DNA of 64,000 nt from Salminus brasiliensis (Eukaryota; Chordata; Actinopteri; Characiformes; Bryconidae). The notes beneath the pieces are model-generated. The model was not told the DNA's origin, did not search any database, and saw only the letters and a program-made list of their open reading frames with translations. Below, one piece after another: positions 680 to 32,002 of the stretch. The stretch spans positions 28,832,782 through 28,896,781 of the forward strand of contig NC_132893.1 of the NCBI RefSeq assembly GCF_030463535.1, written 5' to 3'. The position numbers and the translations under genes were made by a program. Within the stretch, counting starts at the first letter, position 1. Each line of letters starts with the position of its first letter.

Positions 680-32002
<31,323 letters not shown>

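What the first reader, a model, noticed from the sequence alone, without database searches (positions are those of the whole stretch)
14422..14428. 7-nt micro-exon in musk that is required to keep frame
The bases AATGGAG sit between a strong 3' and a strong 5' splice site. They are the only visible way to join the Ig3 exon (phase 1 out) to the CRD exon (phase 2 in), and they recreate the conserved EW of MuSK. Micro-exons this small are easily missed by gene predictors and often need neural- or muscle-type splicing factors; a muscle receptor kinase that depends on one is notable.
Basis: partly seen in the sequence, partly recalled or inferred. Interest (0 to 1): 0.75.

Follow-up and report, generated by a model that had tools for sequence, protein, structure and literature searches.

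The report
Known 7-base micro-exon of MuSK
The muscle receptor gene musk in this genome has a coding exon only seven bases long that keeps the protein in frame; the sequence supports it, but a 7-base exon of this gene is already described in humans, so the find is largely expected.

Summary
On the minus strand, 14428-14422 reads AATGGAG, between a good 3' splice site (tttttcccatag) and a good 5' splice site (gtaaga). It joins the Ig3 exon (16824-16665, phase 1 out) to the first CRD exon (12760-12497, phase 2 in), giving ...[17 protein letters not shown]. Human MuSK reads ...[17 protein letters not shown], EW at the same columns. Leaving the exon out shifts the frame; a stop codon ends at base 65 of the CRD exon. 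It scores best of 216 in-frame extra exons of up to 60 nt. 'Only way' is slightly too strong: one direct in-frame join exists, through a weak cryptic acceptor.

It is not new in kind. PMC9929638 (2023) reports a 7-bp coding micro-exon of human MUSK: no skipped variants in NCBI, no skipping in RT-PCR sequencing, high homology across species. That it is the same junction is my inference.

What I add is a predicted mechanism: a 75-nt AG-free zone with a candidate branch point at -64 beside a pyrimidine tract, the layout mapped for the 4-bp MPC1 micro-exon (-68/-63), which may let U2 and U1 fit around a tiny exon. A second, 24-nt micro-exon lies at 9759-9736.

The parts
16665..16824 (-). Exon coding for the second half of MuSK Ig3 (160 nt, phase 0 in, phase 1 out)
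   Evidence: Splice sites and frame; phmmer matches to MuSK chains 9nwg, 8s9p, 9lgg
14429..16664 (-). Upstream intron, 2236 nt, gtgggc...cccatag
14431..14505 (-). 75-nt AG-free zone upstream of the micro-exon's acceptor; the longest of the 13 musk acceptors measured (the other 12: 14-64)
14476..14496 (-). Candidate distal branch point (cTTAAC, A at -64 = 14492) followed by the pyrimidine tract CCTCTTCTTTCTTCTT
   Evidence: prediction by motif only
14422..14428 (-). 7-nt micro-exon AATGGAG (codes the last two bases of E, all of W, and the first two bases of R)
12761..14421 (-). Downstream intron, 1661 nt, gtaaga...ttctgtag; a (CA)n stretch starts 18 nt into it
12497..12760 (-). First Frizzled-type CRD exon (264 nt, phase 2 in, phase 2 out)
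   Evidence: Pfam Fz PF01392, E 3.7e-15, on the joined Ig3b-CRD1-CRD2 protein
10182..10354 (-). Second CRD exon (173 nt, phase 2 in, phase 1 out)

Best explanation
It is the ortholog of the 7-bp constitutive coding micro-exon of vertebrate MUSK. It completes the codon left by the Ig3 exon, adds EW to the Ig3-CRD linker and hands the right phase to the CRD exon, so a full-length receptor made with the strong splice sites must include it. Inclusion most likely rests on the exon's own strong sites: a near-consensus 5' site (GAG|gtaaga) and a long AG-free 3' region with a distal branch point (A at -64) and adjoining pyrimidine tract. That spacing would let U2/U2AF bind well upstream so that U1 can sit on the donor of a 7-nt exon without clashing. 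Shown here: sequence, frame, match to human protein, strength of sites. Inferred: splicing itself, the branch point, constitutive inclusion in this species, identity of the exon with the human one. The confidence given is for the identity (a real micro-exon at this junction, orthologous to the human one); for the distal-branch-point mechanism it is about 0.45, and the regulated-switch rival concerns mode of use, not identity.
For: Frame and junction; EW at the same columns as human MuSK in a single alignment across the junction, E 3.4e-43, one-residue gap after EW; best of 216 in-frame candidates; shuffles; a published 7-bp coding micro-exon of human MUSK with no skipped variants in NCBI and high homology across species. 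Human C317, 12 residues after E305 (positions in 8s9p_C), is in human exon 9 of NM_005592.3, consistent with a micro-exon lying just before it. Distal branch point layout: a yTnAy with its A at -50 or further inside the AG-free zone and at least 16 pyrimidines in the next 18 bases occurs at 1 of 250 AGs in the interval (this exon's own), 5 of 4205 on the minus strand and 2 of 4275 on the plus strand; with at least 14 of 18, at 1, 8 and 6. In MPC1, branch points were mapped at -68 and -63 next to a distal pyrimidine-rich region, and its donor is guaaga.
Against: No transcript was seen. No second genome could be compared; one viral-contig scan found no relative, as expected of a vertebrate gene. 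The thresholds for the branch-point count were set after seeing the site, and an ordinary candidate (ctgat, A at -34) also exists. Constitutive inclusion is carried over from mammals. In a HeLa reporter the human MUSK fragment was noticeably skipped. The place of the human 7-bp exon in the protein was not readable (figure not held). Five of eight top-scoring small-exon candidates in the window outscore it.
Confidence: 0.93

Rival explanations
1. The micro-exon is regulated by tissue factors (neural or muscle type, e.g. SRRM3/4, RBFOX, PTBP1, or hnRNP L on the downstream CA repeat), so that inclusion is a switch between full-length receptor and a truncated Ig-domain product or decay of the mRNA.
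For: Human MUSK fragment poorly included in HeLa; TGC at -16, GCATG at -126 and (CA)n from +18; micro-exon clusters with muscle patterns exist in mouse (PMC7821500 passages).
Against: Strong splice sites, and constitutively included micro-exons are the ones with the strongest signals; no skipped variants of the human exon in NCBI; the full TGCATG is absent within 250 nt on either side; TGC, GCATG and CA repeats are common by chance (not tested here). The roles of these motifs are recalled.
Confidence: 0.12
2. The seven bases are not an exon; the Ig3 exon is joined directly to a cryptic acceptor at 12749 inside the CRD exon, dropping EW.
For: This join keeps frame.
Against: The acceptor scores 1.7 bits against 8.7 at 12760; it would lose EW, which human MuSK has.
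Confidence: 0.02
3. Another exon in the interval joins Ig3 and CRD, e.g. the 13-nt candidate at 14350-14338 (15.0 bits).
For: In frame and second best of 216.
Against: It gives SGCYAMLY, unlike human; 4 bits weaker. Single exons above 60 nt and pairs of extra exons were not enumerated.
Confidence: 0.02

Closest known systems
7-bp coding micro-exon of human MUSK (PMC9929638; passages and sections 7 and 12 read)
   Same: Same gene, same length, coding, not a multiple of 3, flanks said to show high homology across species; human protein has EW where this exon codes it.
   Different: Species. The paper's figure with the human sequence is not held, so the human seven bases were not read.
4-bp constitutive micro-exon of MPC1 (PMC9929638, section 12)
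   Same: Not a multiple of 3; donor guaaga; distal branch point (-68/-63 there, candidate -64 here) beside a pyrimidine-rich tract.
   Different: Other gene; there mapped by lariat analysis, here predicted; the MPC1 fragment is completely included in the HeLa reporter, the human MUSK fragment is not.
Neuronal micro-exons under Srrm3/Srrm4 (PMC12626424, only the start of its abstract seen, in the listing)
   Same: Very short exon.
   Different: Those are switch-like in neurons and mostly keep frame when skipped (the second point recalled); this one breaks the frame when skipped.

Membership tests
Orthologous MUSK 7-nt micro-exon | Lies in a musk gene | tested here: met
   Ig, Fz and kringle domains in order on the minus strand; best PDB matches are MuSK
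Orthologous MUSK 7-nt micro-exon | Seven bases, coding, not a multiple of 3 | tested here: met
   By sequence and frame, no transcript
Orthologous MUSK 7-nt micro-exon | Codes the EW of the Ig3-CRD linker | tested here: met
   Aligned with human EW
Orthologous MUSK 7-nt micro-exon | Same exon boundaries as in the human gene | not testable with these tools
   No vertebrate genome at hand; human C317 in exon 9 is consistent
Constitutive non-3n micro-exon of the MPC1 type | Distal branch point with pyrimidine tract in a long AG-free zone | tested here: inconclusive
   Motif present at -64, rare among AGs of the window by thresholds set afterwards; branch point not mapped
Constitutive non-3n micro-exon of the MPC1 type | Always included in mRNA | not testable with these tools
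   No RNA data
SRRM3/4-type neuronal micro-exon | Skipping keeps the frame | tested here: not met
   Skipping shifts the frame, stop codon ending at base 65 of the CRD exon; that this marks the group is recalled

The most novel reading that the evidence does not exclude
The vertebrate MUSK micro-exon is spliced by the distal-branch-point design mapped for MPC1: branch point and pyrimidine tract roughly 50-65 nt upstream inside an AG-free zone. This may be a general way in which constitutive frame-breaking micro-exons avoid the clash of U2 and U1 across a few bases.
Probability: 0.45. Interest if true: 0.4.

Novelty: already known. Interest (0 to 1): 0.22.

Why it matters
Gene predictors that miss the exon will truncate or mis-join musk in newly sequenced vertebrates; of 402 micro-exons conserved between mouse and zebrafish in one study, 16.1% were missing from the Ensembl zebrafish annotation (PMC7821500 passages). 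Mutations of this exon or its flanks would be easy to overlook yet should knock out a receptor needed for the nerve-muscle synapse (inference). The distal branch-point layout gives a testable idea of how frame-breaking micro-exons are included reliably.

Tried and rejected
Direct Ig3-CRD joins (donors 16740-16500, acceptors 12900-12700) and single extra exons of 1-60 nt were enumerated and set aside as weaker; none but one weak extra (-0.9 bits) besides AATGGAG gives EW.

Literature, 10 searches: MuSK with microexon / micro-exon gave 9 and 2 papers; 'musk' with '7-bp exon', 'zebrafish musk' with exon and splice, and 'musk gene' with exons, splice variant and 7 bp gave none; broader sets gave 45, 14, 199 and 7 papers, of which I opened only those cited; variant names near human c.913-921 gave 7 papers, none opened. 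PMC12445529 (agrin Z exons; passages) and PMC4018985 (MUSK patients, '14 exons'; passages) were seen and add nothing on this exon. DOI 10.1038/srep06841 (recalled as a paper on human MUSK exon 10) is not held. A viral-contig scan found no relative: 9 pattern matches, none confirmed. Other species could not be compared; the genome search 'own' did not answer. The genome-contig collection was not scanned.

Errors of mine on the way: exon ends were off by one or more bases for several exons outside the Ig3b / micro-exon / CRD1 / CRD2 set, and the JM donor score rests on such an end; no claim uses them. Notebook entry 1 misquotes flanking letters; entry 2 corrects the exon ends.

Full report
What is there. 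The seven bases lie on the minus strand of the window: 14428-14422 read AATGGAG, preceded by ...ctgcgtttttcccatag and followed by gtaagaat. The surrounding minus-strand gene is musk: exons for Ig2, Ig3, CRD, kringle, transmembrane and juxtamembrane segments and the start of the kinase follow one another; Pfam finds Ig domains, Fz (E 3.7e-15) and, on the second kringle exon, kringle (E 1.3e-12); the best PDB matches of the CRD and Ig3 exons are MuSK. I did not work out the Ig1 exons. A kringle between CRD and membrane is found in fish, amphibian and bird MuSK and is lost in mammals (PMC3927609 and PMC6966886 passages), which fits a non-mammalian vertebrate; 'fish' itself I did not test.

Frame and junction. 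The Ig3 exon 16824-16665 ends one base into a codon, and the CRD exon 12760-12497 begins with the third base of one. With the seven bases the product reads ...[30 protein letters not shown]...; phmmer aligns it in one stretch to the Ig3-Fz construct of human MuSK (9lgg_A, E 3.4e-43), in which EW stands at the same columns ([21 protein letters not shown]); the human chain has one residue more just after EW. Without the seven bases the frame shifts and a stop codon ends at base 65 of the CRD exon.

How unique. Using approximate splice-site weights recalled from general knowledge, I scored all in-frame single extra exons of 1-60 nt in the 3904-nt interval: AATGGAG is first of 216 (19.0 bits; second 15.0), and only one other of the 216 gives EW, at -0.9 bits. 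In 300 dinucleotide shuffles, 5 held a micro-exon of 3-30 nt in any frame scoring as high, 2 held an in-frame one, 51 held an in-frame EW-giving one of score 0 or more, and none held an EW-giving one of 15 bits or more. Against: in the whole window, both strands, 8 candidates of 3-30 nt reach 18 bits and 5 of them beat this one, so the score alone would not single it out. Also, one direct in-frame join exists, from 16665 to an acceptor at 12749 inside the CRD exon, scoring 1.7 bits; 'the only visible way' is therefore slightly too strong.

Already known. PMC9929638 (passages, sections 7 and 12) names a 7-bp micro-exon of human MUSK in the coding region, without skipped variants in NCBI; reports that direct sequencing of RT-PCR products showed no skipping in the lines tested; says that the micro-exon and its proximal introns show high homology across species; and reports consistent data in mouse 3T3L1 and C2C12 cells. 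The same paper found a 418-bp human MUSK fragment noticeably ineffective in micro-exon inclusion in HeLa. The paper's figure is not held, so that the human exon is the one before the CRD is my inference from the EW alignment and from C317 being in human exon 9 (PMC7028094 passages).

Mechanism. The acceptor of the micro-exon has the longest AG-free zone of the 13 musk acceptors measured, 75 nt against 14-64; over the AGs between 22831 and 12497, 11 of 651 gaps are that long. Inside it a branch-point-like TTAAC has its A at -64 and is followed by CCTCTTCTTTCTTCTT. A yTnAy at -50 or beyond in the AG-free zone with at least 16 pyrimidines in the next 18 bases is found at 1 of 250 AGs in the interval (this one), 5 of 4205 on the minus strand and 2 of 4275 on the plus strand; I chose the thresholds after seeing the site, and a second candidate at -34 exists. 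In MPC1 the mapped major branch points lie at -68 and -63 near a distal pyrimidine-rich region, and the authors suggest that this helps to overcome the closeness of the two splice sites; MPC1's donor is guaaga, as here. I take this as the likeliest way in which seven bases are recognised. It is a prediction.

Regulation. Constitutively included micro-exons have the strongest splice signals (PMC7821500 passages), and this one's are strong. The full TGCATG is absent within 250 nt; a GCATG at -126, a TGC at -16 and a CA repeat from +18 are present, with no test here of whether they exceed chance. A tissue-factor switch remains possible, given the HeLa result, but is less likely.

Verdict. A real exon by sequence, correctly spotted from raw bases, and most likely the ortholog of a described human exon. 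Novelty low; the distal branch-point layout and the second, 24-nt micro-exon are the parts worth carrying on.

Noticed in passing
9736-9759, minus strand: A second musk micro-exon: 24 nt AGATCAAGAAAGACCAGATTACAA between ...ttttttgcag and gtaagt, phase 1 in and out, coding EIKKDQIT after the CRD; rat MuSK (3hkl) reads DYKKENIT and human (8s9p) DYNKENLK at the same columns. At 23.4 bits it is the best of the exons of 3-30 nt listed for the window. Being a multiple of 3, it could be skipped without loss of frame.
   Followed up: partly
9495-9583 and about 7812-7973, minus strand: Two exons of a MuSK kringle domain ([14 protein letters not shown]..., then [27 protein letters not shown]...); Pfam confirmed the second, the first was read by eye. 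Mammalian MuSK lacks the kringle.
   Followed up: partly
10677-11803, minus strand: Two overlapping open frames that look like a broken Tc1-like transposase (recognised from memory) inside the intron between the two CRD exons.
   Followed up: no
2704-3192, plus strand: An open frame that looks like a piece of a non-LTR retrotransposon (recognised from memory).
   Followed up: no
14338-14350, minus strand: A 13-nt in-frame candidate exon (15.0 bits) 71 nt downstream of the micro-exon, the runner-up in the interval.
   Followed up: partly
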